Source: Myxococcales bacterium (GTDB lineage Bacteria > Myxococcota > UBA727 > GCA-2721815). From it: a DNA stretch of 64,000 nt. The notes under the pieces were generated by a model. The model worked only from the letters and a program-made list of their open reading frames with translations. It had not been told where the DNA came from and did no database searches. Where the stretch lies: positions 1 through 64,000 of the forward strand of contig PBLQ01000046.1 of NCBI GenBank assembly GCA_002721815.1. Reading direction: 5' to 3'. The position numbers and the translations under genes are program-made. Of this stretch, positions 26,977 through 37,919 are shown in pieces (position 1 is the stretch's first letter; every line of letters begins with the position of its first letter).

Positions 26977-27795
26977 ATGCCTACCATTATCATTCATGAA
27001 CTTCACAAACAGCCCCGTGCGCAGAGCTTCGCTCAAAACAAAATCGTCATTGGCCGTGAAGATGGATGTGACATTGTGCTCACCCACACCTCGGTTTCTC
27101 GGCAGCATGCGCAAATCTTTTTGGCCAGTGATCACAACTACTACGTACAAATGATCTCCCAGAAAAACCCGATTCTGGCCAATGGCAAAATCATTTCTGA
27201 ACACACCAGCCTCAAAGAAGGGGACGAGCTGCAATTCGGGCCTTATCTGATCTACTTCTCCAAAGAAGACAAAGCGATGCCCAAATACATGCAACAAAAA
27301 ACGCATCTGTACGAGGCTGAATGCAGGGGTTGTGGCTGGCAAGGCACCTTAAGCGAACACACGCGAAACCCAATATGTCCGCGCTGTGGTCTCAGTGAGT
27401 TCAATAAAGTAGAGGATATGTTTTCCAACCCCATGGCCAACGAACGAACCAGCACCTTAGATGCTGCAGCGCTGGCCCGGCTTCACCAAAGCACCAAAGC
27501 CGCTAAAACAGCGCGCATCGAACGGGTGGTGGCGATCCCAGGGAAGCCCTCCAAAATCAACCTCACCGAATCCACGGTGGTGGTCATCGGTGGCAGCGAT
27601 AGTGATTTGCCTTTCAAGGGGCTTCGCATAGGCGGTACCGCAACGATCTCCTGGAGCGGCACCAACTTTATCGTCCAAAGCGAAGGCTTTATGCCCAAGC
27701 TCAAAATCAATGGGAATGTGCGGGAAAAAGCAACCCTCAAAAATGGGGATGTGCTTCAAATGGGTGGCACGGAGTTCAAATTCCTGATTGGCTAG
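26977..27795 (+). CDS. FHA-domain protein with zinc ribbon and second FHA-like domain
   Basis: Protein of 272 residues. Residues about 10-95 are an FHA domain with the phosphothreonine-binding residues in IGREDGCDI and SVSRQHAQI, and the later NGKIIS. A zinc ribbon follows at about 112-135 (CRGCGWQG, then CPRCG). The C-terminal 75 residues are again beta-rich and FHA-like: LRIGGTATISWSG, KLKINGNVREKATLKNGDVL and FKFLIG, but without the Arg-Ser-His triad. The first FHA could bind phosphorylated targets of the kinases in this window. AAGAGG precedes the ATG at 26977. Cytoplasmic. Confidence 0.85.
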   Translation: MPTIIIHELHKQPRAQSFAQNKIVIGREDGCDIVLTHTSVSRQHAQIFLASDHNYYVQMISQKNPILANGKIISEHTSLKEGDELQFGPYLIYFSKEDKAMPKYMQQKTHLYEAECRGCGWQGTLSEHTRNPICPRCGLSEFNKVEDMFSNPMANERTSTLDAAALARLHQSTKAAKTARIERVVAIPGKPSKINLTESTVVVIGGSDSDLPFKGLRIGGTATISWSGTNFIVQSEGFMPKLKINGNVREKATLKNGDVLQMGGTEFKFLIG

Positions 27796-27859
27796 GCGCC
27801 AGCGCCATAGGTCGTTGGGCCGAGTGCAATTGAGGTCAAAAGACCCTACAATCCCAAAC

Positions 27860-28984
27860 ATGAAAACAATCTCACCCCCCCCCTTTGTTATCCTTCCCAT
27901 TCTTTGCCTCGTTTGGGGCTGCGGCGCTGATCAAGGCCTTGTTTTGGAGGCCCGTCAATCACAAAGCCAACAGGCCATCATCAACGGCGAACTGTGTGAT
28001 GAAAGCAGCTTTTCCAGCGCGGTGGCCTTGATCACCGATGCAGAAATTCAAGTTCCATGGTTTGGGGATCAAACCATTCGCCAAGCCACGTGTACCGGAA
28101 CGCTGATCGCACCCGACGTGGTTTTAACCGCCGCTCACTGCCTAGACCCCACCCTCGCTACTTTTGGTTTTGGCGAAGTGCAGTCCTTGGCCTTTTACGT
28201 ATCCCCACAAGCCGACCTCACCAGCATGGAAACCGAAAACGCGGTCATTCCAGAATCTGCTCAAATCGCATCCGATTGGGTGGCCCACCCCGAGTTCGAC
28301 ATCGACGGCCTCCAGTCCGCAGGTGGTCCCATTAACCTCAAAGACGTGGCTTTGGTTTTCTTGGACGAGCCCATGGACATTGAACCCGCCATTGTCATCA
28401 CCAAAGAAGAAGCCGAACAACTCACAGTCGAAAAAGAAGTCTCCATCGTGGGCTGGGGCATGCAAACAGCTGAAGGGGGCAGTCCATGGGAAGCGCCGCC
28501 AGCGGGCACCACCGGTAAAAAAGTTTGTGCCGAATCGTTTATTAACGAGGTGGGAAGTCACGAATTTCAGGTGGGTGCCGATGCCTCTACCTCCCGTAAA
28601 TGTCATGGCGATTCTGGGGGCCCATCCTATATGACGGTCACCACAGACAGCCCAAAGAAACGTCGCGTGGTGGGCATTACTTCCCACGCTTACGATGAAA
28701 GCGACTGTGAAAAAGGTGGGATTGATACACGCGTAGACGTGTGGCTTGACTGGATTGAAGCTGAAATGATCGCCGCATGCGATTCTGGGGCCCGCACCCA
28801 GTGCGACACACCGGGCATCCTTCCTCCCCCTCCCCCCGAAAAGGACATCAACCTCGACGCACAAAGTGACCAAGCTCCCGAAGAACTTGGGTGCGGCTGC
28901 TCTCAAAGCCAACGATCATCTCGTGAAGGACTGGCTGCATGGGCATTGATCTTATTCGGGTTGTGGCGCGTGAGACGCTCTTAG
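27860..28984 (+). CDS. secreted trypsin-like serine protease with MYXO-CTERM-like tail
   Basis: Protein of 374 residues. The S1 protease domain has the full triad: His93 in LTAAHC, Asp162 in KDVALVF and Ser252 in CHGDSGGP. The zymogen-type start IINGEL is near residue 35. The N-terminus is a signal with a lipobox-like end (CLVWGC). The C-terminus reads GCGCSQSQ, then a hydrophobic stretch LAAWALILFGL, then RVRRS, which is the MYXO-CTERM plan of Cys, membrane segment and basic end, a cell-surface sorting signal in myxobacteria. The start has no clear ribosome binding site; TACAAT stands seven bases before the ATG. The longer in-frame extension into the FHA gene is unlikely. Confidence 0.85.
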   Translation: MKTISPPPFVILPILCLVWGCGADQGLVLEARQSQSQQAIINGELCDESSFSSAVALITDAEIQVPWFGDQTIRQATCTGTLIAPDVVLTAAHCLDPTLATFGFGEVQSLAFYVSPQADLTSMETENAVIPESAQIASDWVAHPEFDIDGLQSAGGPINLKDVALVFLDEPMDIEPAIVITKEEAEQLTVEKEVSIVGWGMQTAEGGSPWEAPPAGTTGKKVCAESFINEVGSHEFQVGADASTSRKCHGDSGGPSYMTVTTDSPKKRRVVGITSHAYDESDCEKGGIDTRVDVWLDWIEAEMIAACDSGARTQCDTPGILPPPPPEKDINLDAQSDQAPEELGCGCSQSQRSSREGLAAWALILFGLWRVRRS

Positions 28985-29166: not shown

Positions 29167-30813
29167 CTACTGGTTCGGTGCGCACCTGGAACCATGAGCG
29201 CAAGGCGGCTCATCGCAGCCGATATCATCATCGGGAATCTCTTCACAGAAACTGTCATCGCCTGGGCAATCAGAATCCTCGGCACAGAAGATCGAACAAG
29301 TATAGTTATCTTCGAAATCCTCGTCTTCTCCCAGAGTGCTGGCGATGCCCCAACCAGAGCAAATGGCGCCCTCGGCACACTGTACCCAGTTACCGCCACC
29401 ACCAGGACCACCGCCACCGCCCTCACGACGACCGCATTGCTTGTTTTCTAAGAATTCAGTGTGCGCCGCACAACTGATTTCACCGTAGGGCTCAACCTCT
29501 TCGTCATCATCGGGAACATCTCCACCATTGGTGTAAGGGACACACTGAGCACCAATCAGATCGTCCACACTCTCTTTTTGGCGACACGCGTATCCGTTGG
29601 GGCAATCATCGTTGGTGAGGCTACAGGCCTTGGCACAGAACTGCTCACCGCCCCACCAGCCACCGCCGAAGCTCAGACACAGATTGTCCTCACCGCAATC
29701 ACGACTGTCTCTGCATTCCTCGCACAGGCCCAAGGGCTCATCGATTTCGCAGTAATAATCCACACAAGAATAGCCATTTTGACAGTCGCCATTCTCCACA
29801 CAGTCCACACAAAGGTTGTCATCGTTACAGATTTGATCGCCCCAGCAACCGCCATTCCAACATCCGGCGCGACAAACCCCGGGTGTCACTGACGTGTCGC
29901 AAGTGGGGGTCCACCCGCCACAATCATCATCGTTCCGGCAACCGGCCACACACTCGGTCTCAATGCACAGCTTACCTTCACCGCATTCTTCATCGGAGTC
30001 GCATGAAAAACGACAGACATCGTCTTCGCAGGTCTCGTTTTCAGGGCAGCGGCTGTCGTCATCATTGCAACCAGGTGTGCATTGGTTCTCATAGCAGAAG
30101 GTAGAGAGGGGGCAGTCGGAGTCTTCGATGCAACCTTCAATGCAGGTTCCGTCTAAGCACAGTAAATCGCTGGGGCAATCACGATCAGTCCGGCAGCCTT
30201 CCACACAATCATTGTTCTCGCAAATGTTGCCTAATTCGCACTGCTCGTCTTCCAGGCAGTCGACACAAGTGTCTGTGGCGGCATCGCAGTACTGTCCATT
30301 TTCACAGGCGTTGGGGTTGTCTGCACAGCTAAAACGACAATCGTTATTCACACACAGCTCGTCGTCTTCGCAGTGGTCTGCATTCACGCAGATAACACAC
30401 GCACCGGTGGGGCCCAAATCGGGATCGCAGTGAAGCCCATCGTCACAATCATCATCGGAGTCGCACCCCTCTTCGGTTTGGCAAATGCCTCCAATACATC
30501 GTTCGCCGGGCTCACAATCTTCGTTTCGCTGACATTCGGGCTCTGGGTCACCATCGGTGTTACCATCGGCGTTACCGTCGGCGTTACCGTCGGCGTTACC
30601 ATCGGCATTACCGTCGGAGTTGCCATCGGACGACCCATCCATGCTTCCCCCATCAGCATCCATGGCCATGCCACCATCCATATCATTAGACTGACTGCTT
30701 CGACCGCCGCGATCTTCGCCTTCAATGGACGAACGAGGCTTCAGTAAAGCACCACAAGCGCAAAGCGCCGTAATCATAAATAAAAGACATGCATTGGAAA
30801 AAAGACGACCCAT
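29167..30813 (-). CDS. large Cys-rich surface lipoprotein with Asp-Gly-Asn spacer
   Basis: Protein of 548 residues with a lipobox (ALCAC, Cys20). An acidic spacer follows, then DGN/DGNA repeats at about 65-90, encoded by a 12-base tandem repeat. The rest consists of about fifteen short Cys motifs of the kind C-x5-C-x5-C-x3-C (for example CRTDRDCPSDLLCLDGTC), which are probably disulfide knots. The Asp-rich spacer could bind calcium. The C-terminal 100 residues have fewer cysteines and a Gly-rich loop (GRREGGGGGPGGGGN). AGGGAG precedes the ATG. It is divergent from the FAD/PKS operon. The Cys motif is shorter than the DUF4215 repeats of the array at 44 kb, but the style is similar. Confidence 0.8.
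   Translation of the reverse strand: MGRLFSNACLLFMITALCACGALLKPRSSIEGEDRGGRSSQSNDMDGGMAMDADGGSMDGSSDGNSDGNADGNADGNADGNADGNTDGDPEPECQRNEDCEPGERCIGGICQTEEGCDSDDDCDDGLHCDPDLGPTGACVICVNADHCEDDELCVNNDCRFSCADNPNACENGQYCDAATDTCVDCLEDEQCELGNICENNDCVEGCRTDRDCPSDLLCLDGTCIEGCIEDSDCPLSTFCYENQCTPGCNDDDSRCPENETCEDDVCRFSCDSDEECGEGKLCIETECVAGCRNDDDCGGWTPTCDTSVTPGVCRAGCWNGGCWGDQICNDDNLCVDCVENGDCQNGYSCVDYYCEIDEPLGLCEECRDSRDCGEDNLCLSFGGGWWGGEQFCAKACSLTNDDCPNGYACRQKESVDDLIGAQCVPYTNGGDVPDDDEEVEPYGEISCAAHTEFLENKQCGRREGGGGGPGGGGNWVQCAEGAICSGWGIASTLGEDEDFEDNYTCSIFCAEDSDCPGDDSFCEEIPDDDIGCDEPPCAHGSRCAPNQ
30549..30630. repeat. 12-base tandem repeat coding for Asp-Gly-Asn units
   Basis: About seven copies of a unit like ACCATCGGCGTT (plus strand) run head to tail with a few substitutions. 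They encode the DGNADGN spacer of the minus-strand lipoprotein, and the 12-base period keeps the frame. Copy number could change by slippage without breaking the gene. Confidence 0.85.
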
Positions 30814-30830: not shown

Positions 30831-30858
30831 TTGAAAGAAAACCTGGCGGATGTATAAC
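30831..30858 (+). promoter_or_regulatory. sigma-70-like promoter of the FAD/PKS/methyltransferase operon
   Basis: TTGAAA at 30831 and TATAAC at 30853 are separated by 16 bases. This lies in the 96-base divergent gap, about 50 bases before the first start codon, and faces the operon. Confidence 0.5.
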
Positions 30859-30909
30859 ACATCTGCGGAACCAAAACCCTGGTTTTTCGTTCTAAGGAAA
30901 AGGCGCGCA

Positions 30910-32148
30910 ATGGGCTATGGGGCAACAGACCGATCGGTGTTAATCGTTGGAGGCGGCATGGCCGGTTCCGCCACCGCGCTCAATTTGGCCAAACGCGGTA
31001 TCAAATCGCAAGTGCTTGATAAATATGACTTCCCCAGAGACAAAATCTGTGGTGAGGGGTTGCTTCCGCAAGGGGTTGAGCGTTTGCAGAATCTCTTGGG
31101 GCATGCCGCGCTGTCCCAAATTGAGTCGCATCCTTTTGAGGGGATCCATTACCGTTTTGGCCCACATGAAGCCCAAGGCCTCTTTCACCAAGAATCGGGA
31201 CTGGGGCTGCGCCGCAATGCCATCGATCATTTACTCTACCAAGAGACCGTCAACAGCCCCCATATTGAGAGGCAGCGCGCCCAAATCCAAAAAATAGAAC
31301 GTCGAGATGGCACCTTCGTGGCCACCGCAAAATGCGGTACCACTTTTACCGCCCCCATATTGGTTGCCGCGGATGGTCTCAACAGCAGCTGCCGGCGGAT
31401 CCTTCGCCTGGATCAACCTTTACCCAAACGAAAACGCTACGCATTGAGGCGCCACTATCAACTCGCCCACAGCCGCCAAATGCCTTCTGCCGTTGAGGTC
31501 TCCGCTTGTGACGGTTTTGAGTCTTACGTGACACCCGTAGGGCCACAAACCATCGGAGTTGCATTTCTACTGGAAGAACGCTGTATGAAAAATGGGCCGA
31601 AAGACCTCGACGAACGATGGCGTTCCATTCTCTCCCAGTCCCACCCCAGCCTTCAGCAGAAGCTTCAAAATGCGCAAGCTTTAGAATCCGCACAGGCCTG
31701 CGGGCCACTTCACCGACGGGCAAAAAAAGTTTACGAAGACGGGGCCTTTCTCGTGGGGGATGCCGCCGGTTTTGTGGACGCAATTACCGGCGAGGGCATG
31801 AGTTTGGCCCTGCACGGCGCAGAATTGATTGCTGACTCTGTCCATCACCACTACGCACTGGGGCACCCCTTAAATAAAAGCGGACAAGTTTACGCTCGTG
31901 CGTGGAAAAAGCATTTTCAGAATTATGCGGCCCTCACCCACGGGCTGCTCTGGTTAATCCAGGACAAGAAGAAATTAGCCAATGCACTTGTGCGCTTGCA
32001 ACGAAAACCCTCTTTGTTCACAAGCCTGCTGGATATGAACCAGGGACGCGGGGCCCTGCTGTCCCTTAACACACTAAAATTTATAGAGCTTTTGATTCCA
32101 ACACGGACGTCCTTGCCAAAAACCACCACATCCCTAACGTCTCCCTAA
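30910..32148 (+). CDS. FAD-dependent oxidoreductase, geranylgeranyl reductase-like
   Basis: Protein of 412 residues. The N-terminal FAD-binding motif is VLIVGGGMAGSATALNLAKRG. The segment FPRDKICGEGLLPQG is characteristic of the geranylgeranyl reductase group. The second FAD motif FLVGDAAGFVDAITGEG is near residue 285. The group reduces or hydroxylates isoprenoid and polyketide-type compounds. Here it is the first gene of an operon with a type III polyketide synthase and an ICMT-type methyltransferase, so it most likely modifies the polyketide product. AAGGAAAAGG precedes the ATG at 30910; the upstream frame extension passes the promoter and is not used. Confidence 0.85.
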   Translation: MGYGATDRSVLIVGGGMAGSATALNLAKRGIKSQVLDKYDFPRDKICGEGLLPQGVERLQNLLGHAALSQIESHPFEGIHYRFGPHEAQGLFHQESGLGLRRNAIDHLLYQETVNSPHIERQRAQIQKIERRDGTFVATAKCGTTFTAPILVAADGLNSSCRRILRLDQPLPKRKRYALRRHYQLAHSRQMPSAVEVSACDGFESYVTPVGPQTIGVAFLLEERCMKNGPKDLDERWRSILSQSHPSLQQKLQNAQALESAQACGPLHRRAKKVYEDGAFLVGDAAGFVDAITGEGMSLALHGAELIADSVHHHYALGHPLNKSGQVYARAWKKHFQNYAALTHGLLWLIQDKKKLANALVRLQRKPSLFTSLLDMNQGRGALLSLNTLKFIELLIPTRTSLPKTTTSLTSP

Positions 32149-32171
32149 ATCTTTATGCATAGGAATGTGTC

Positions 32172-33233
32172 ATGGCAATTGCGTGTCTCCCCGCCCTGGA
32201 AGTCCCCGAATACCGTTTTGATGAAGACTCATTAGAACAAACGGCAAAGCTCTTTTTAGGGGAAACCTTTCCCCGGCTCCAAACCATTTTGCGCATGATT
32301 AAGAATGCTGGCGTCAAGCAGCGTTTCTTGGTCCAACCCATCGAAGAAACCCTGAAGCCTGATGGGATTAAGCATCGCAATGATCTCTTCATTAAAACGG
32401 TGAAACGACTCGGTGAAAAAGCGGCCCAGCAAGCACTGGACAATGCCAACTTGAGACCCGAAGACATCGACTACATCATCACCACGTCATGCACCGGTTT
32501 CATGATTCCTTCTTTGGATGCATATCTGATTCCTAAAATGGGTTTTAGGCGCGACACGAAACGATTGCCCATTACCGAACTGGGATGCGCCGCCGGCGCG
32601 GTGGCGTTATCGCGCGCTCGGGAATTCTGCGAGGTTCATCCAGGCAAACACGTGCTCATCGTCGCCGCCGAGCTCTGCTCTCTGACCTTTCAACCCCAAG
32701 ATCTTTCCATGCAAGCCCTGGTGAGTGGCCTTATTTTTGGCGATGGCGTGGCGGCCTGTGTGGTGCGAGGTGACGAAGAAGAAAGCGGCATGCGATTGGA
32801 AAAAAACGCGTCCCACCTCTTCGATGACTCCTGGAATTACATGGGGTTTGACCTGAAAGACACCGGTTTTCATATCATCCTCGATCGCGGGATCCCCGGA
32901 GCAGTGGACAAGCAGATCGCCCCCGTGCTGAAAAATTTCGTCAACCAATGCAACATGGACACCAATGACTTGGGCTTCTATTGTATCCACCCCGGCGGAC
33001 GTCGCGTCATCGATGAAATTAAAAACACCTTCGAACTAGAAGAAGACGATGTGGCCGCAAGCCGCGCCTGTCTGTCCGAAGTAGGCAATCTGAGCAGCGC
33101 CAGTGTTTTGGTGGTGCTTAAAAACCTCTTCGAACGCTTTCGCCCCGAAGCCAACAGCCGCGGCTTGTTGGCCGCTTTTGGACCAGGCTTTTCCGCCGAA
33201 ATGAGCGTCGGAACCTGGCACGAAAAATCATGA
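32172..33233 (+). CDS. type III polyketide synthase (chalcone/stilbene synthase family)
   Basis: Protein of 353 residues. The catalytic triad of the family can be placed: Cys139 in TELGCAAGA, His273 in YCIHPGGRR and Asn306 in VGNLSSASV. The end GPGFSAEM corresponds to the conserved GFGPG region. Type III PKSs condense a starter acyl-CoA with malonyl-CoA; bacterial relatives next to methyltransferases make alkylpyrones or alkylresorcinols, often membrane lipids. AGGAATG precedes the ATG, 23 bases after the FAD gene. The stop overlaps the methyltransferase start (ATGATG region). The chain length cannot be read from the sequence. Confidence 0.93.
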   Translation: MAIACLPALEVPEYRFDEDSLEQTAKLFLGETFPRLQTILRMIKNAGVKQRFLVQPIEETLKPDGIKHRNDLFIKTVKRLGEKAAQQALDNANLRPEDIDYIITTSCTGFMIPSLDAYLIPKMGFRRDTKRLPITELGCAAGAVALSRAREFCEVHPGKHVLIVAAELCSLTFQPQDLSMQALVSGLIFGDGVAACVVRGDEEESGMRLEKNASHLFDDSWNYMGFDLKDTGFHIILDRGIPGAVDKQIAPVLKNFVNQCNMDTNDLGFYCIHPGGRRVIDEIKNTFELEEDDVAASRACLSEVGNLSSASVLVVLKNLFERFRPEANSRGLLAAFGPGFSAEMSVGTWHEKS

Positions 33234-33811
33234 TGATGCTTGGGGAATCACCTTGGTTTTTGATTCTCATGGCCTTAGTGGCCTTGGCGCGCGTGGCAGA
33301 ACTTATTTACGCAAAAGCCCTGGGCAAGAAAGCGGCATCTCGAGGTGAAAAGCCTCAAAGAGAACGTAACTTCATCGCCATGGTGGCGCTGCACACCTCC
33401 TTCTTTGTGGGAATTGCCGCAGAAAAAATACTCCTGGCGGCGGCCCCGCCCCAATGGCTGTTGGTTTTGTGTGTCCTCGTCTTGGTCTTCGCTTTTGGTC
33501 TTCGCTTTTGGACCCTCAAAACGCTGTCGGGCTCGTGGCATGTCCGTATTGTTAAGCCCGCGACCATTGTAACGCACGGCCCTTACGCATTTATACGTCA
33601 CCCCAACTATTTGGTGGTCATTTTAGAAATCGTGGCGCTGCCCATGCTGGGCGGCTGTTACATTAGCGCTCTTATGTTCACGTTATGGAATGCCGCGGTA
33701 TTGGCCGCTCGAATCCCCCAGGAAGAAGCCATGCTCTTCCAGGTGAACGGGTACCGACAAGCCTTCAAAGACAAGGGTCGCTTTTTTCCGAAACTGTTAC
33801 GGAAAAGTTGA
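33230..33811 (+). CDS. isoprenylcysteine carboxyl methyltransferase (ICMT)-family membrane methyltransferase
   Basis: Protein of 193 residues with four to five membrane segments. The C-terminal AdoMet-binding region has the ICMT signature HGPYAFIRHPNYLVVILE and the later EEAMLFQVNGYRQAF. Members next to type III PKS genes (for example BpsB of Bacillus) methylate the polyketide; methylation of the product of the adjacent PKS is the most likely role. The start overlaps the PKS stop by four bases. The 3' end overlaps the convergent small gene by 15 bases. Confidence 0.88.
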   Translation: MMMLGESPWFLILMALVALARVAELIYAKALGKKAASRGEKPQRERNFIAMVALHTSFFVGIAAEKILLAAAPPQWLLVLCVLVLVFAFGLRFWTLKTLSGSWHVRIVKPATIVTHGPYAFIRHPNYLVVILEIVALPMLGGCYISALMFTLWNAAVLAARIPQEEAMLFQVNGYRQAFKDKGRFFPKLLRKS

Positions 33812-34302: not shown

Positions 34303-35277
34303 TTATTTCACGACTGCATCGCGACGGCTGATCCAGGATTTTTCTCTTAAGTTGTTGATATAACTTCGGAAAAGTCTTTCCATTTCGCGGTTCGTGAGCT
34401 CTTGCCGCAAGACGGGGGCCACTTTCTCGTAAGACTCTTTTTCCATGGGCAGCTTATCGGCCACCCAAATCAAATGCATGCCAAACGGTGTGCGCACCGG
34501 ACCCGTCACCGTTTTGACCTCTGCCGCATACGCAGCCTTCTCAAAGGCGGGTACCATTTGTCCAGGCCCAAAAAAGCCCAAATCGCCCCCCTGAGGTGCA
34601 GAGGGCCCTTCGCTGTATTGTTTGGCCATGGCATCAAAAGCGGCGCCAGCAGCCAGCTCGGCCAACACTTTTTGCACTTTATCATTGGCTCGATTTTCTT
34701 CTTCGGCAGAAGCCCCCGGTTCGAGTTTGAAAAGAATGTGACTGGCTCTCAGCTTATAGACGCCTTCAGTCATGCGCGTTCGCTCACGATACAGCGCCCG
34801 CACGTCTTCGTCTGGAATTTGAACTTCATTTTTCACCTTGCTTTGCACCAATCGCATTTTGATCAGCTGATCTTTAATCTGCTGCCGATATTGCTTCATG
34901 GTAATACCTTGCATTTCCAAGGCCTGTTGAAACTGTGCAGGATTCATTTGGTTTTGGGCCCCCATACGCTTCACCACGCCGTCGACTTCTGCCTCGGAGA
35001 CATCGATCTTGAGCCGCTTCACCTCTTGCGCCACCAAACGATCGTCGATCAATGATGACAAAGCCAAGGCCTCTTTTTCCTCGAGGGACATTTGCGAAGC
35101 ATTCGGTGACTGCTCCATGCGCGCCACGCGCTTTTTCACATCGGAGAGCAACACCACCTCATTGCCAACATGGGCCACAATGCCTTCAATAATCTCACCA
35201 GCACTGGCGGTAGGAACGGGCGCCCACAAAGCAACTGCTGCGACAACTGCAAAACACCTTGAGGGGTTAATGAACAT
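34303..35277 (-). CDS. SurA-like periplasmic peptidyl-prolyl isomerase
   Basis: Protein of 324 residues with a signal peptide (FAVVAAVALWAPVPTASA). The N-terminal SurA-type helical domain starts with GIVAHVGNEVVLLSDV, a hallmark of SurA. One parvulin domain lies at about 185-285 (RASHILFKLEP, GGDLGFFGPGQMVPAFE, PFGMHLIWV). E. coli SurA has two parvulin domains; this one has one. It would fold outer-membrane or exported proteins in the periplasm. The ATG at 35277 has GGAAGAG upstream and overlaps the end of the preceding isomerase gene by 11 bases. It is the last of three parvulin genes in a row. Confidence 0.88.
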   Translation of the reverse strand: MFINPSRCFAVVAAVALWAPVPTASAGEIIEGIVAHVGNEVVLLSDVKKRVARMEQSPNASQMSLEEKEALALSSLIDDRLVAQEVKRLKIDVSEAEVDGVVKRMGAQNQMNPAQFQQALEMQGITMKQYRQQIKDQLIKMRLVQSKVKNEVQIPDEDVRALYRERTRMTEGVYKLRASHILFKLEPGASAEEENRANDKVQKVLAELAAGAAFDAMAKQYSEGPSAPQGGDLGFFGPGQMVPAFEKAAYAAEVKTVTGPVRTPFGMHLIWVADKLPMEKESYEKVAPVLRQELTNREMERLFRSYINNLREKSWISRRDAVVK

Positions 35278-36271
35278 GATTCTCTTCCACGCTGGGGTCA
35301 GTATTTTCATCAGGCACAAATACCACCTGAGCATTTAATTCCAACAACCGTTTTTTAAGGTTTTCCGCATTAATTTGGACCCCCTGCCGCTCGTGTAGGC
35401 GGGCCTTCTGGGCGGCCACCAAGTCTTCTTCTTGGGCTTGTCGCAAAATATTACCGATCAGCTCTTTTTTCTCCTCAAAAGAGGATGGCTCACCTTGCCG
35501 ACGCTCGAGCAGCTTAAAAAGATGGTAACCATATTCTGAACCAATAACTTTTGAGACTTCGTTTTTCTTCAGCCCGAAGCACACATCAAACACTTCGGGC
35601 ATGGTGCCTTTAGAAAACCATTCCAAAACGCCGCCTTTATCAGCCTCTGGAGACTTGCTGAAACGCCTGGCCGCCACCTCAAAAGGCAGAGCGCTTCTTC
35701 CCACCAGTTGCTGTCGAACATAGTCGGCCTCTTCTTGGGTATCCAACAATAAATGCAGGGCACGTATCTCTTCCTTGTTCATTTGGGGTACCATTTTGTC
35801 CTGGTAATAGGTCCGCATTTGTTTTTCGGACACAGGGGGCAACTTCTCTTTTTGCGCTTGCAGGTAATGCTTGATGAGTAACCGTTTCTCCAGTTGCTTG
35901 CGAAATGCTGGCAAGGTCCATTTTTCTTGGTTCAAAAGCTGAACAAAGTTGAGGCGCTTGAACTCTGCCGCACTCTTTCGGGCCGCTCGGTTCACTTCTT
36001 CAATGGAGATGGTTAAGCCCGATGCCAAAGCTTCTTGAACCAAAGCCGTTTCTTCGCCGAAATTTTTTGCTAGCCCTGTGGCCACCTTGAGCTGGGCGTC
36101 CACATCCTTGAGCTCAAAAACCTCGCGCTGCGCCCAATACAGCACCAAGGATGCTTCTGGCACTGTTTCTCCATCCACTTTCAAAATCCAGGAACGGGCC
36201 TTTTTTTGAACAGGATCCTGAGGACACGCCAAAGGGATCGTCAACGTTAAGAGCAGCACCAAGCGCTTCAT
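35267..36271 (-). CDS. parvulin-type peptidyl-prolyl isomerase lipoprotein (second of three)
   Basis: Protein of 334 residues with a lipoprotein signal (LLLTLTIPLAC, Cys16). The N-terminal helical chaperone-like part contains LNQEKWTLPAFRKQLEKRLL. The parvulin domain at about 165-265 has RALHLLLDTQEEADYV, GGVLEWFSKGTMPEVF and YGYHLFKLLE. The plan resembles PrsA or a SurA relative attached to a membrane. The ATG at 36271 directly abuts the stop of the first parvulin gene at 36272, so the operon is tight. The C-terminal acidic tail is unusual. Confidence 0.82.
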   Translation of the reverse strand: MKRLVLLLTLTIPLACPQDPVQKKARSWILKVDGETVPEASLVLYWAQREVFELKDVDAQLKVATGLAKNFGEETALVQEALASGLTISIEEVNRAARKSAAEFKRLNFVQLLNQEKWTLPAFRKQLEKRLLIKHYLQAQKEKLPPVSEKQMRTYYQDKMVPQMNKEEIRALHLLLDTQEEADYVRQQLVGRSALPFEVAARRFSKSPEADKGGVLEWFSKGTMPEVFDVCFGLKKNEVSKVIGSEYGYHLFKLLERRQGEPSSFEEKKELIGNILRQAQEEDLVAAQKARLHERQGVQINAENLKKRLLELNAQVVFVPDENTDPSVEENHVH

Positions 36272-37291
36272 TTATTGGTGTGCTCCGCCCACGGGTGGGT
36301 GACGCCCGGGCAAGTGGCCGTGAGGATCTTTCGCAGCCGATCCCACATCAAAACGCAGCTCTTTCTTGCGCTCTTGGTTGAGGGTCACGCCAATGTCTTT
36401 TTTAATGGCTTCGATGTAAGCCTCAAATGCCACTTTGCGTTTTTGTCGGTAGACCCGGTTTTTCACTTGGGCACGAACCTCGCTAAGTTCACGATTGGTG
36501 GGCTCTCGAACGCCCAACTTTTTAAAAATATGATAACCCGTGCGGCTCTCGACCACGTCGGAAACCCCGTTCACCTCCGCAATGTCCCACGCCGCCTTGG
36601 CTGCTTTTTCCCCGTAGAGGCTCACAAGTTCGTCCCGGGAACGATAGCGCAAATCACCACCGGTGCTTTGCGTGTCTTTGTCTTGTGAATGCTTGCGAAC
36701 CAGTTCGCGAAAATGGGAGCGAGACGCCGATTTTTGTGGGGCGTTGGCTTGAGGCAAAACCTCGCGGGCGCGCGCCAAGCTGGCTTTTTTATCGTCACCG
36801 AATTCGAAGAAAATATGTGCCAATCTCGACATGGCTGGCTTTTTATAATCTTTCACATTCTCCTGATAAAACTTTTCAATCTCGGGCACCGTTACATCGG
36901 CCAATTTCACTTGGTTATCGAAGACATCGCGGGTGAGTTTTTGTACGATTAGTTTTTTAGCGGCATCCATGACCTCTGTGTCTTTGTCATAACCCAATGC
37001 AATGCCTTTTTCCGCCAAAAGGGCATAGCGGATTTGTCCGGTGATGAATTTATCTAAAGCTGCTGGATCTTTTTCGTACTGCGCACGAACGTAAGGACTT
37101 TGTTTGTTGATGAGTTTTTGAATCTGGGAAACCGTAATGCGCGTATTCCCCACCCGAGCCAACACAGAGCTGTCTTTTTGAGGCTCGGCATCGAACTGAA
37201 ATACTTTTACTTTTCCAGTGGCGCCATCTCCCAGAGGCCGGGGACAGGCAGAAATCAAAAAGAGTAAAGAGAACAAGCCAAAGTACTTCAC
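36272..37291 (-). CDS. parvulin-type peptidyl-prolyl isomerase lipoprotein (first of three)
   Basis: Protein of 339 residues. The GTG at 37291 is preceded by GGAGGG and gives a lipoprotein signal (LFSLLFLISAC). The N-terminal part begins with LARVGNTRITVSQIQKLI, like SurA and PrsA. A parvulin-like domain at about 165-270 has RLAHIFFEFGDDKKAS, GGDLRYRSRDELV and TGYHIFKKLG. The C-terminal HGHLPGRHPPVGGAH is His/Gly/Pro-rich and might bind metal. The gene heads the three-isomerase operon. Upstream coding frame to 37447 overlaps the YkgJ-like gene and is not used. Confidence 0.82.
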   Translation of the reverse strand: MKYFGLFSLLFLISACPRPLGDGATGKVKVFQFDAEPQKDSSVLARVGNTRITVSQIQKLINKQSPYVRAQYEKDPAALDKFITGQIRYALLAEKGIALGYDKDTEVMDAAKKLIVQKLTRDVFDNQVKLADVTVPEIEKFYQENVKDYKKPAMSRLAHIFFEFGDDKKASLARAREVLPQANAPQKSASRSHFRELVRKHSQDKDTQSTGGDLRYRSRDELVSLYGEKAAKAAWDIAEVNGVSDVVESRTGYHIFKKLGVREPTNRELSEVRAQVKNRVYRQKRKVAFEAYIEAIKKDIGVTLNQERKKELRFDVGSAAKDPHGHLPGRHPPVGGAHQ

Positions 37292-37340
37292 AGGACCCTC
37301 CGCAATGAAAGGCCACCGATAGCGTGACCATCGCGGATGA

Positions 37341-37919
37341 TCAACCGCCTTCGCCAGGGGGGCCCGCAGGTGTGCCGGTAGCGATCTCGGCCATGGGCAC
37401 ACGCTCATTTGGGTTGGCGATACCCTGATCTGCACAAAAGCGGGCATTCACCACCCAAAGTAACTGATAAACCTTGGCCACGTCCAATACATCGGCCGCT
37501 TGCGGTATTTTCCCTGAATCAAAATTCAACGAACATGTGACCGTGTCTTCGCCCAAGACCCTCAGCGCACCTGGCCTGCGCGATGTCTCACTATCGGTCA
37601 TTTTCATCGGCAAGCCGTGGGTTCGACACACCAAAGGCCGGTGCGCATAAACGTCACACAGGCCTTGGGCATTCAAACAAGAGCAATGTGACTCAGAAAG
37701 CCGCTCTACCGAGCCAACTTGGGCCTTACCATCCTGCAAAGACGCCTGAATAAATGCCGCCTCTACGGGCAGGAGTGTTAACCCTGCTGTGCAGCACTGC
37801 GCACATCCGGGCTCACAGTTGATTTCGCTTTCAAATTTTCGCCACAGCGGTGTCGTGAAAGCCTCCACTTTGGCCAAAACCGCCCGGTACTCTTGAAATG
37901 CAGCATCTGAATTTTTCAT
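37341..37919 (-). CDS. YkgJ-family cysteine cluster protein
   Basis: Protein of 192 residues with the Cys cluster typical of this zinc- or iron-binding family: CEPGCAQCCTAG near 35-46, then CSCLNAQGLCDVYAHRPLVCRTHG near 97-120. The family is widespread with uncertain function; a metal or Fe-S cluster is likely. No signal peptide, so cytoplasmic. The ATG at 37919 has only a weak GGTG upstream. It lies 49 bases before the first parvulin gene and is probably part of the same transcript. The Pro/Gly-rich C-terminus (TGTPAGPPGEGG) is not conserved in the family as I know it. Confidence 0.82.
   Translation of the reverse strand: MKNSDAAFQEYRAVLAKVEAFTTPLWRKFESEINCEPGCAQCCTAGLTLLPVEAAFIQASLQDGKAQVGSVERLSESHCSCLNAQGLCDVYAHRPLVCRTHGLPMKMTDSETSRRPGALRVLGEDTVTCSLNFDSGKIPQAADVLDVAKVYQLLWVVNARFCADQGIANPNERVPMAEIATGTPAGPPGEGG

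What the first reader, a model, noticed from the sequence alone, without database searches (positions are those of the whole stretch)
30910..33811. Three-gene type III polyketide pathway with reductase and membrane methyltransferase
A geranylgeranyl reductase-like FAD enzyme, a type III PKS with intact Cys-His-Asn triad and an ICMT-type methyltransferase are closely spaced (the last two overlap) behind a good promoter (TTGAAA-16-TATAAC). Type III PKS plus ICMT pairs make methylated alkylpyrones in Bacillus. The added FAD enzyme suggests hydroxylation, reduction or quinone formation.
Basis: partly seen in the sequence, partly recalled or inferred. Interest (0 to 1): 0.5.

Follow-up and report, generated by a model that had tools for sequence, protein, structure and literature searches.

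The report
Myxococcal lipid-quinone gene set
Three neighbouring genes in a myxobacterium-like bacterium look like a variant of a known enzyme set that builds a fatty ring compound, adds a methyl group and oxidises it to a quinone; it is mostly familiar, but its core enzyme comes from an unusual branch of the family.

Summary
FAD enzyme (30910-32148), type III PKS with C139-H273-N306 (32172-33233) and ICMT-type methyltransferase (33230-33811) form one short + strand unit between minus-strand ORFs. The set is of a known kind: PKS + methyltransferase + FAD oxygenase operons (srs/pkq in actinobacteria, hid in cyanobacteria, a planctomycete operon) for methylated alkylresorcinols and alkylbenzoquinones (polyketide quinones). 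The partners are widespread: of 80 named PKS loci, 70 carry the ICMT and 51 the FAD gene within 6 kb. Among 194 other Myxococcota genomes, 109 of 124 with the PKS also hold the FAD gene, against 4 of 70 without. So the FAD enzyme most likely serves the PKS pathway, as an oxygenase rather than a geranylgeranyl reductase. Unusual: the PKS is not in the branch of Streptomyces/mycobacterial operon PKSs but in a strongly supported clade with tetrahydroxynaphthalene synthase (THNS); it keeps THNS Cys106 but has Phe226 where all six THNS-side rows have the starter-selecting Tyr224. The FAD gene comes first, not last. Most likely product: a methylated, long-chain alkyl-benzoquinone or hydroquinone; untested. 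New variant of a known kind; modest interest.

The parts
30831..30858 (+). promoter-like site TTGAAA-16-TATAAC, 51 nt before the first start codon
   Evidence: direct reading; 10 of 12 matches, one of 7 such + strand sites in the window; not proof of function
30894..30903 (+). ribosome-binding-site-like AAGGAAAAGG before the FAD gene
   Evidence: direct reading
30910..32148 (+). FAD-dependent oxygenase-like enzyme (SrsC/PkqC position in the pathway), 412 aa
   Evidence: PF01494 61 bits; TIGR02032 126.5 bits, below cut-off 158.8; G14/G16/G19, K45, C47-G48-E49-G50, D155-G156, G283-D284 invariant in 25 aligned rows; AlphaFold2 mean pLDDT 89.9
32161..32164 (+). ribosome-binding-site-like AGGA before the PKS gene
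   Evidence: direct reading
32172..33233 (+). type III polyketide synthase, 353 aa, triad C139-H273-N306, Cys107 (= THNS Cys106), Phe226 (= THNS Tyr224 / CHS Gly256)
   Evidence: Pfam; nearest solved structure THNS 1u0m 316 bits, also first by fold, 43% identity; residues; tree
33230..33811 (+). ICMT-type membrane methyltransferase (SrsB/PkqB position in the pathway), 193 aa, start overlaps PKS stop by 4 bp
   Evidence: PF04140 71 bits; H124-P-N-Y127, E133, R161, E165 invariant in 16 aligned rows; three separate hydrophobic stretches by a simple window scan

Best explanation
A three-gene operon for a membrane lipid of the polyketide-quinone type. The PKS takes a fatty acyl starter (probably long chain, as CoA or ACP ester), extends it with (methyl)malonyl-CoA and cyclises the chain to an alkylresorcinol (alkylpyrone as a side or alternative product). 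The ICMT-type membrane enzyme methylates the hydrophobic product, most likely at a ring hydroxyl. The FAD enzyme then hydroxylates the ring, giving a hydroquinone in redox balance with a methoxy-alkyl-benzoquinone. The product would sit in the membrane as a supplementary electron carrier or protective phenolic lipid. Shown here: the genes, catalytic residues, linkage and co-occurrence. Inferred from characterised operons of the same make-up: the chemical steps and the product. Not shown: expression, product, chain length.
For: Linkage: of 80 named PKS loci, ICMT within 6 kb in 70 (69 within 300 bp, same strand), FAD gene in 51 (48 of them at 300 bits or more), both in 48. Co-occurrence in Myxococcota: both genes 109, PKS only 15, FAD only 4, neither 66 of 194 genomes; Fisher 7e-32, not corrected for relatedness; 93 of the 109 pairs within 10 kb, median 2.6 kb among these 93. 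Protein distances of PKS, FAD and ICMT go together over 55 sets (r 0.90-0.92, 0 of 2000 permutations as high; also expected from shared descent). The same three partners stand together in Streptomyces (L075, L077, L094) and mycobacteria (L069, L117, L124); papers report for such operons alkylresorcinol, then methylation and hydroxylation to benzoquinones (PMC9927152, PMC5916927, passages). Phe226 is bulky and aromatic at the column where most other ICMT-linked PKSs have Trp and THNS has Tyr224. Two Corallococcus loci and two proteobacterial ones hold an AMP-binding enzyme between ICMT and FAD genes, which fits fatty-acid starters.
Against: The PKS is outside the branch that holds the Streptomyces and mycobacterial operon PKSs and PKS11, so inferring its product by homology is weak. 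In the four genomes closest by PKS (G010, G008, G003, G025) the FAD gene is on another contig, in G010 and G003 among housekeeping-type genes. Several Acidobacteria loci (L053-L055, L062) have ICMT but no FAD gene within 6 kb although the contig goes on. 15 of 124 Myxococcota genomes with the PKS have no FAD match; one search scored at most 9 candidates per genome in larger genomes, so some may be missed. In the planctomycete study the role of the FAD gene stayed open and the methyltransferase probably methylated carbon (PMC10896814, passages; those proteins were not compared here). The genome has no close copy of the AMP-binding partner. Type III PKS clusters of Myxococcia are described as alkylpyrone clusters (PMC12766979, passages).
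Confidence: 0.62

Rival explanations
1. Methylated alkylpyrone pathway (Bacillus BpsA/BpsB-like or Myxococcus alkylpyrone-like) in which the FAD enzyme oxidises or reduces the side chain or ring.
For: 22 of 80 loci have ICMT but no FAD gene within 6 kb, some cut by contig ends; Brevibacillus L105 is one of them with 8 kb on each side; the Myxococcia cluster is annotated as alkylpyrone (PMC12766979, passages).
Against: The FAD gene keeps company with the PKS across the phylum and in quinone-making operons; an aromatic residue at the ArsB Trp281-like column favours resorcinol by the account in PMC6274091 (my mapping of that column to Phe226 is inferred). PKS11, a pyrone-type PKS by its PDB title, lies in the branch where Trp is usual, so the rule is not clean.
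Confidence: 0.2
2. Tetrahydroxynaphthalene-type pathway: the PKS makes THN (or an acyl relative), the ICMT methylates it and the FAD enzyme oxidises it to a flaviolin-like naphthoquinone.
For: Best solved relative by sequence and fold is THNS; 13-row clade with THNS at 100/99 support; THNS Cys106, Cys138 and Cys168 are kept, and Ser at the Cys184 column is shared with three Streptomyces rows of the THNS side.
Against: Tyr224, which selects the malonyl starter in RppA (PMC6274091, passages), is Phe in the window and in all 6 ICMT-linked relatives of the clade but Tyr in 6 of 6 THNS-side rows; Ala305 is Ser in the window, Ala in 4 of 4 Streptomyces-type THNS rows, but Ser also in the two marine THNS-side rows. 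None of the 5 THNS-side genomic loci (L051, L071, L136, L137, L138) shows an ICMT match or a FAD match above 39 bits.
Confidence: 0.12
3. The FAD gene is a true geranylgeranyl (isoprenoid) reductase that only happens to lie next to the PKS-ICMT pair.
For: Closest NCBIfam model is the GG-reductase family; in four close relatives it is unlinked.
Against: Score below that family's cut-off, as for four PKS-linked FAD enzymes from Streptomyces, Mycobacterium, Corallococcus and an acidobacterium; presence follows the PKS (109 of 124 against 4 of 70); in the quick FAD tree it groups (SH-aLRT 89, not starred) mostly with FAD proteins of genomes holding related PKSs.
Confidence: 0.06

Closest known systems
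srsABC of Streptomyces griseus and pkqABC of Mycobacterium smegmatis (phenolic lipids / polyketide quinones)
   Same: type III PKS, methyltransferase and FAD oxygenase as neighbouring genes; FAD and ICMT proteins of Streptomyces and mycobacterial loci align with shared motifs
   Different: PKS from another branch (Streptomyces and mycobacterial loci stand in for SrsA and PkqA, which were not themselves in the tree), Phe instead of the usual Trp at the THNS-224 column, FAD gene first instead of last
hidABC (hierridin) of picocyanobacteria and the planctomycete alkylresorcinol operon (PMC8086630, PMC10896814, passages)
   Same: three-gene methyltransferase, oxidoreductase, type III PKS operon for alkylresorcinol products
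   Different: order MT-FAD-PKS or PKS-MT-FAD; direct sequence comparison with HidA/B/C was not made here
Myxococcia 'alkylpyrone' cluster (BGC0001831 type)
   Same: Corallococcus loci L081, L083, L084 have PKS, ICMT and the FAD gene
   Different: PKS of the other branch and an extra AMP-binding enzyme between ICMT and FAD genes in L081 and L083. That these loci are the BGC0001831 cluster is inferred from the genus list in PMC12766979
1,3,6,8-tetrahydroxynaphthalene synthase (RppA/THNS)
   Same: closest solved PKS (1u0m), same clade, Cys106 kept
   Different: Tyr224 to Phe, Cys171 to Thr, Ala305 to Ser; ICMT and FAD partners, whereas the THNS-side locus L136 has an aromatic prenyltransferase, cupin, aminotransferase and class I methyltransferase nearby
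Bacillus BpsA-BpsB alkylpyrone pair (recalled; cited in PMC5916927)
   Same: type III PKS followed by a methyltransferase; the Brevibacillus locus L105 has PKS + ICMT
   Different: no FAD enzyme within 6 kb in L105; its PKS lies in another branch

Membership tests
type III polyketide synthase | Cys-His-Asn triad and chalcone/stilbene synthase domains above cut-off | tested here: met
   C139, H273, N306; PF00195 84.4 and PF02797 71.5 bits, cut-off 27 each
srs/pkq three-gene operon | PKS, methyltransferase and FAD oxygenase genes side by side on one strand | tested here: met
   gap 23 bp and 4-bp overlap; FAD and ICMT families as in Streptomyces and mycobacterial loci
srs/pkq three-gene operon | PKS belongs to the branch of the Streptomyces/mycobacterial operon PKSs | tested here: not met
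   window PKS in a 13-row clade with THNS at 100/99, apart from the 13-row branch (100/100) with L075, L069, L106 and PKS11 (62 rows at SH-aLRT 100). SrsA and PkqA themselves were not in the tree
srs/pkq three-gene operon | Trp at the ArsB-281 column | tested here: inconclusive
   window has Phe226 at the THNS Tyr224/CHS Gly256 column; Trp in 11 of 11 rows of two Myxococcota groups and in 52 of the 61 rows outside the named groups, Phe in the other 9. That this column is ArsB 281 is inferred; ArsB was not aligned
srs/pkq three-gene operon | alkylresorcinol, methyl ether and alkylquinone products | not testable with these tools
   needs expression and mass spectrometry
THNS (RppA) | Tyr224 that selects malonyl-CoA as starter | tested here: not met
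   Phe226 in the window; Tyr in 6 of 6 THNS-side rows (role of Tyr224 from PMC6274091, passages)
geranylgeranyl reductase family (TIGR02032) | score above curated cut-off | tested here: not met
   126.5 bits against 158.8
flavin-dependent halogenase | GWxWxIP motif (motif recalled, not from a call) | tested here: not met
   the column block reads GFESYVTP in the window and E-x-Y-V-T-P in most PKS-linked relatives shown, although halogenases are among the nearest folds
ICMT-type membrane methyltransferase | PF04140 above cut-off and conserved HPNY...E...R..E residues (role of the residues recalled) | tested here: met
   71.4 bits, cut-off 24; invariant in 16 of 16 rows
hidABC operon | sequence kinship of the three proteins with HidA, HidB, HidC | not tested
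   Hid sequences were not fetched

The most novel reading that the evidence does not exclude
The window and its Myxococcota relatives represent a separate kind of polyketide-quinone operon driven by a PKS of the THNS lineage, making a ring system that neither srs/pkq nor THNS enzymes make (for example an acyl-primed longer polyketide folded into an alkylated naphthalene-type quinone). THNS itself would then have arisen from such a lipid-quinone operon by losing the ICMT and FAD partners and changing Phe to Tyr at one pocket position. With the other 31 rows as outgroup the tree places L037 outside a 12-row set (97/93) that holds the window and THNS, so THNS is nested in the ICMT-linked set; the alternative is not rejected (AU p 0.279).
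Probability: 0.15. Interest if true: 0.6.

Novelty: new variant of a known kind. Interest (0 to 1): 0.32.

Why it matters
Polyketide quinones are reported as alternative electron carriers in actinobacteria (PMC9927152, passages). The phylum-wide co-occurrence shown here suggests that a similar capacity is common in Myxococcota, where a conserved type III PKS cluster is called an alkylpyrone cluster and is the one of five conserved clusters whose metabolite has no characterised ecological role (PMC12766979, passages). The THNS-side PKS with ICMT and FAD partners also offers a test of how malonyl-primed THNS and acyl-primed lipid-making enzymes are related: one pocket residue (Phe/Tyr) and two partner genes separate the sets.

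Tried and rejected
Viral contigs were scanned with the PKS: 3 stretches matched a pattern, none encodes a relative. Reading the flanking genes as pathway members was rejected: upstream is a Cys-rich protein with no Pfam or NCBIfam match, downstream a small protein with none and three peptidyl-prolyl isomerase-like proteins. A first, greedy ORF caller mis-called genes in GC-rich loci and was replaced by HMM searches of six-frame ORFs. Halogenase was considered for the FAD enzyme, because halogenases are the best matches by sequence in the PDB and among the best by fold, and was rejected on the missing motif (recalled). The fold ranking does not decide function: Bmp2 is first (Z 42.7, rmsd 2.6, 375 aligned) and the GG-reductase-like 3oz2 is also listed (rank 48, Z 34.7, rmsd 3.4, 374 aligned). 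Respiratory context: one UbiE/MenG-type methyltransferase above cut-off in the genome, no PF02621 (futalosine-pathway) match; this neither supports nor refutes a respiratory role.

Papers: searches; type III polyketide synthase + isoprenylcysteine + geranylgeranyl reductase gave 0 papers, the first two alone 6 (listing only). I make no claim that the THNS-side variant is absent from print beyond these searches. Passages only were seen of PMC12766979, PMC9927152, PMC5916927, PMC8086630 and PMC6274091; of PMC10896814 passages and section 13. Hug 2019, Anand 2015, Funabashi 2008, Nakano 2009/2012 and the ArsB/ArsC structure paper were not read; what I say of them comes from passages in the papers above or is recalled.

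Rows dropped: in the PKS tree, L036, L038 (same genomes as L050, L057) and L135; one search used 44 of those 102 rows; in the FAD tree, L038 and pieces under 250 aa, seven loci (duplicates, broken or ambiguous ORFs) and FAD pieces of 250 aa or less, while four genomes were joined from two contigs as pairs of protein rows. Contig ends cut some loci, so absences there are uncertain. The phylum sample contains the 38 genomes, so the two are not independent.
Full report
What is there. The three genes are real and compact: FAD enzyme 30910-32148, type III PKS 32172-33233, ICMT-type methyltransferase 33230-33811, all on the + strand with a 23-bp gap and a 4-bp overlap. The ORFs on both sides run the other way, so this looks like a three-gene unit. 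The promoter-like site TTGAAA-16-TATAAC is at 30831-30858; sites that good (10 of 12, spacing 16-18) occur 7 times on the + strand of the 64 kb. The families are PF01494, PF00195/PF02797 and PF04140, above their cut-offs. The genome (4.6 Mb, 74 contigs) has a single PF00195 match. Two relatives of the same order are named records, L050 and L057, with the contig lengths of G003:C14 and G004:C6; their origin is given as Myxococcota.

Partners travel together. A scan of named bacterial genomes with a PKS alignment returned 80 loci. Of these 80, 70 have an ICMT gene within 6 kb (69 within 300 bp on the same strand), 51 a FAD gene of this family, and 48 both; in 50 of the 51 the best-scoring FAD gene is downstream on the same strand, in one downstream on the other strand. 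In the window the FAD gene comes first; five actinobacterial loci (L066, L072, L078, L096, L101) have a second, much weaker FAD match upstream of the PKS besides the downstream one. Across 194 other Myxococcota genomes, PKS (E <= 1e-50) and FAD (E <= 1e-30) are both present in 109, PKS only in 15, FAD only in 4, neither in 66. Of the 109 pairs, 96 lie on one contig and 93 within 10 kb, with a median of 2.6 kb among those 93. The 38 nearest-relative genomes, part of the same set, gave 12, 1, 1 and 24 for PKS-ICMT against FAD. These tests do not correct for relatedness. Against full linkage: in the four genomes whose PKS is closest to the window's (G010, G008, G003, G025) the FAD gene is on another contig; in G010 it lies between a radical-SAM gene and a gene with DNA polymerase beta-type domains, in G003 a radical-SAM gene and adenylosuccinate synthetase are near. 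In the quick FAD tree the window's protein still groups with those unlinked copies and with FAD proteins of several loci holding related PKSs (13 rows, SH-aLRT 89, not starred; two rows, L116 and G020's L134, come from genomes with other PKS types).

What the FAD enzyme is. Its best NCBIfam model is the geranylgeranyl reductase family, but at 126.5 bits against a cut-off of 158.8; four PKS-linked FAD enzymes, trimmed to the matched region, from Streptomyces, Mycobacterium, Corallococcus and an acidobacterium behave the same (114, 112, 131 and 122 bits). Aligned relatives share GxGxxG, KxCGEG, RR, DG, E-x-Y-x-x-P and GD motifs, all present in the window except that the RR pair reads R101-R102 within LGLRRN. 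The AlphaFold2 model (mean pLDDT 89.9) is nearest to flavin halogenases and aromatic hydroxylases, with the GG-reductase-like 3oz2 lower in the same list. The fold alone does not decide function; the linkage to the PKS does most of the work. In the srs and pkq operons the third enzyme is described as a hydroxylase or oxidoreductase on the way to the benzoquinone (PMC9927152 and PMC5916927, passages).

What the PKS is. By sequence (1u0m 316 bits, PKS11 202 bits) and by fold (model mean pLDDT 94.5; 1u0m first with 43% identity) the nearest solved enzyme is THNS. In the careful tree of 44 rows, a 13-row clade at 100/99 holds the window, six ICMT-linked Myxococcota PKSs and six THNS-side enzymes; the branch of Streptomyces and mycobacterial operon PKSs, PKS11 and Corallococcus is a different one at 100/100 (the same split appears in the 102-row quick tree). 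The THNS-side set lies inside the ICMT-linked set in the best tree (12 rows, 97/93), but holding the seven ICMT-linked rows together is not rejected (AU p 0.279). At the THNS Tyr224 column the six THNS-side rows have Tyr, the seven ICMT-linked rows of the clade Phe, 17 of 17 rows of the two next groups (mostly Acidobacteria) Phe, 11 of 11 rows of two Myxococcota groups of the other branch Trp, and the remaining 61 rows Trp in 52 and Phe in 9. A review states that Tyr224 lets RppA choose malonyl-CoA as starter and that Trp281 of ArsB favours resorcinol over pyrone formation (PMC6274091, passages). That ArsB 281 is this column is my inference. Together these make an acyl-primed enzyme likelier than a true THNS, and leave resorcinol against pyrone open.

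Mechanism. I infer: acyl starter, a few extensions and ring closure by the PKS; methylation in the membrane by the ICMT-type enzyme; ring hydroxylation by the FAD enzyme, giving a hydroquinone/quinone lipid. Steps shown: gene content, catalytic residues, linkage. Steps taken from characterised operons: product type and order. Cautions: the planctomycete study saw a singly methylated alkylresorcinol, probably on carbon, when methyltransferase and FAD genes were co-expressed, and left the FAD step open (PMC10896814, passages). Myxococcia clusters of this kind are described as alkylpyrone clusters conserved in the phylum (PMC12766979, passages); the two Corallococcus loci checked carry an AMP-binding enzyme between ICMT and FAD genes that has no close match in the window's genome (best E 1e-13, 30% identity).

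Verdict. It is a variant of a known kind of operon: familiar partners, a PKS from the THNS-side branch, and the FAD gene in first place, which the best-scoring FAD gene is not in any of the 51 named loci that have one. Interest is modest; the evolutionary reading about THNS is the part worth testing.

Noticed in passing
window 29167-30813 (-): Cys-rich secreted-looking protein (548 aa) with a DGN-rich tandem tract after the N-terminus and many Cys-rich modules; no Pfam or NCBIfam match. It is divergent to the operon and shares its upstream region.
   Followed up: partly
window 34303-37447 (-): Three adjacent SurA/PrsA-type peptidyl-prolyl isomerase-like proteins in a row, each below the cut-offs of the models listed.
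   Followed up: no
window 27788-28984 (+): Serine-protease-like secreted protein whose C-terminus (CGCS...WALILFGLWRVRRS) resembles a MYXO-CTERM sorting signal (recalled, not tested).
   Followed up: no
genomes G012, G009, G005, G014 (same order as the window): Genomes of 0.3-1.3 Mb in the same order as the 4.6 Mb window genome, with stated completeness of 73-99%: possible strong genome reduction in this myxococcal order, or incomplete bins.
   Followed up: no
L066, L072, L078, L096, L101 upstream of the PKS: A second, divergent FAD protein (150-168 bits) lies upstream of the PKS in Nocardioides/Janibacter loci, in addition to the usual downstream one.
   Followed up: no
L071 and L138: Pseudoalteromonas and a Photobacterium damselae conjugative plasmid carry type III PKSs that branch with THNS (Tyr224 kept) without an ICMT or FAD match.
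   Followed up: partly
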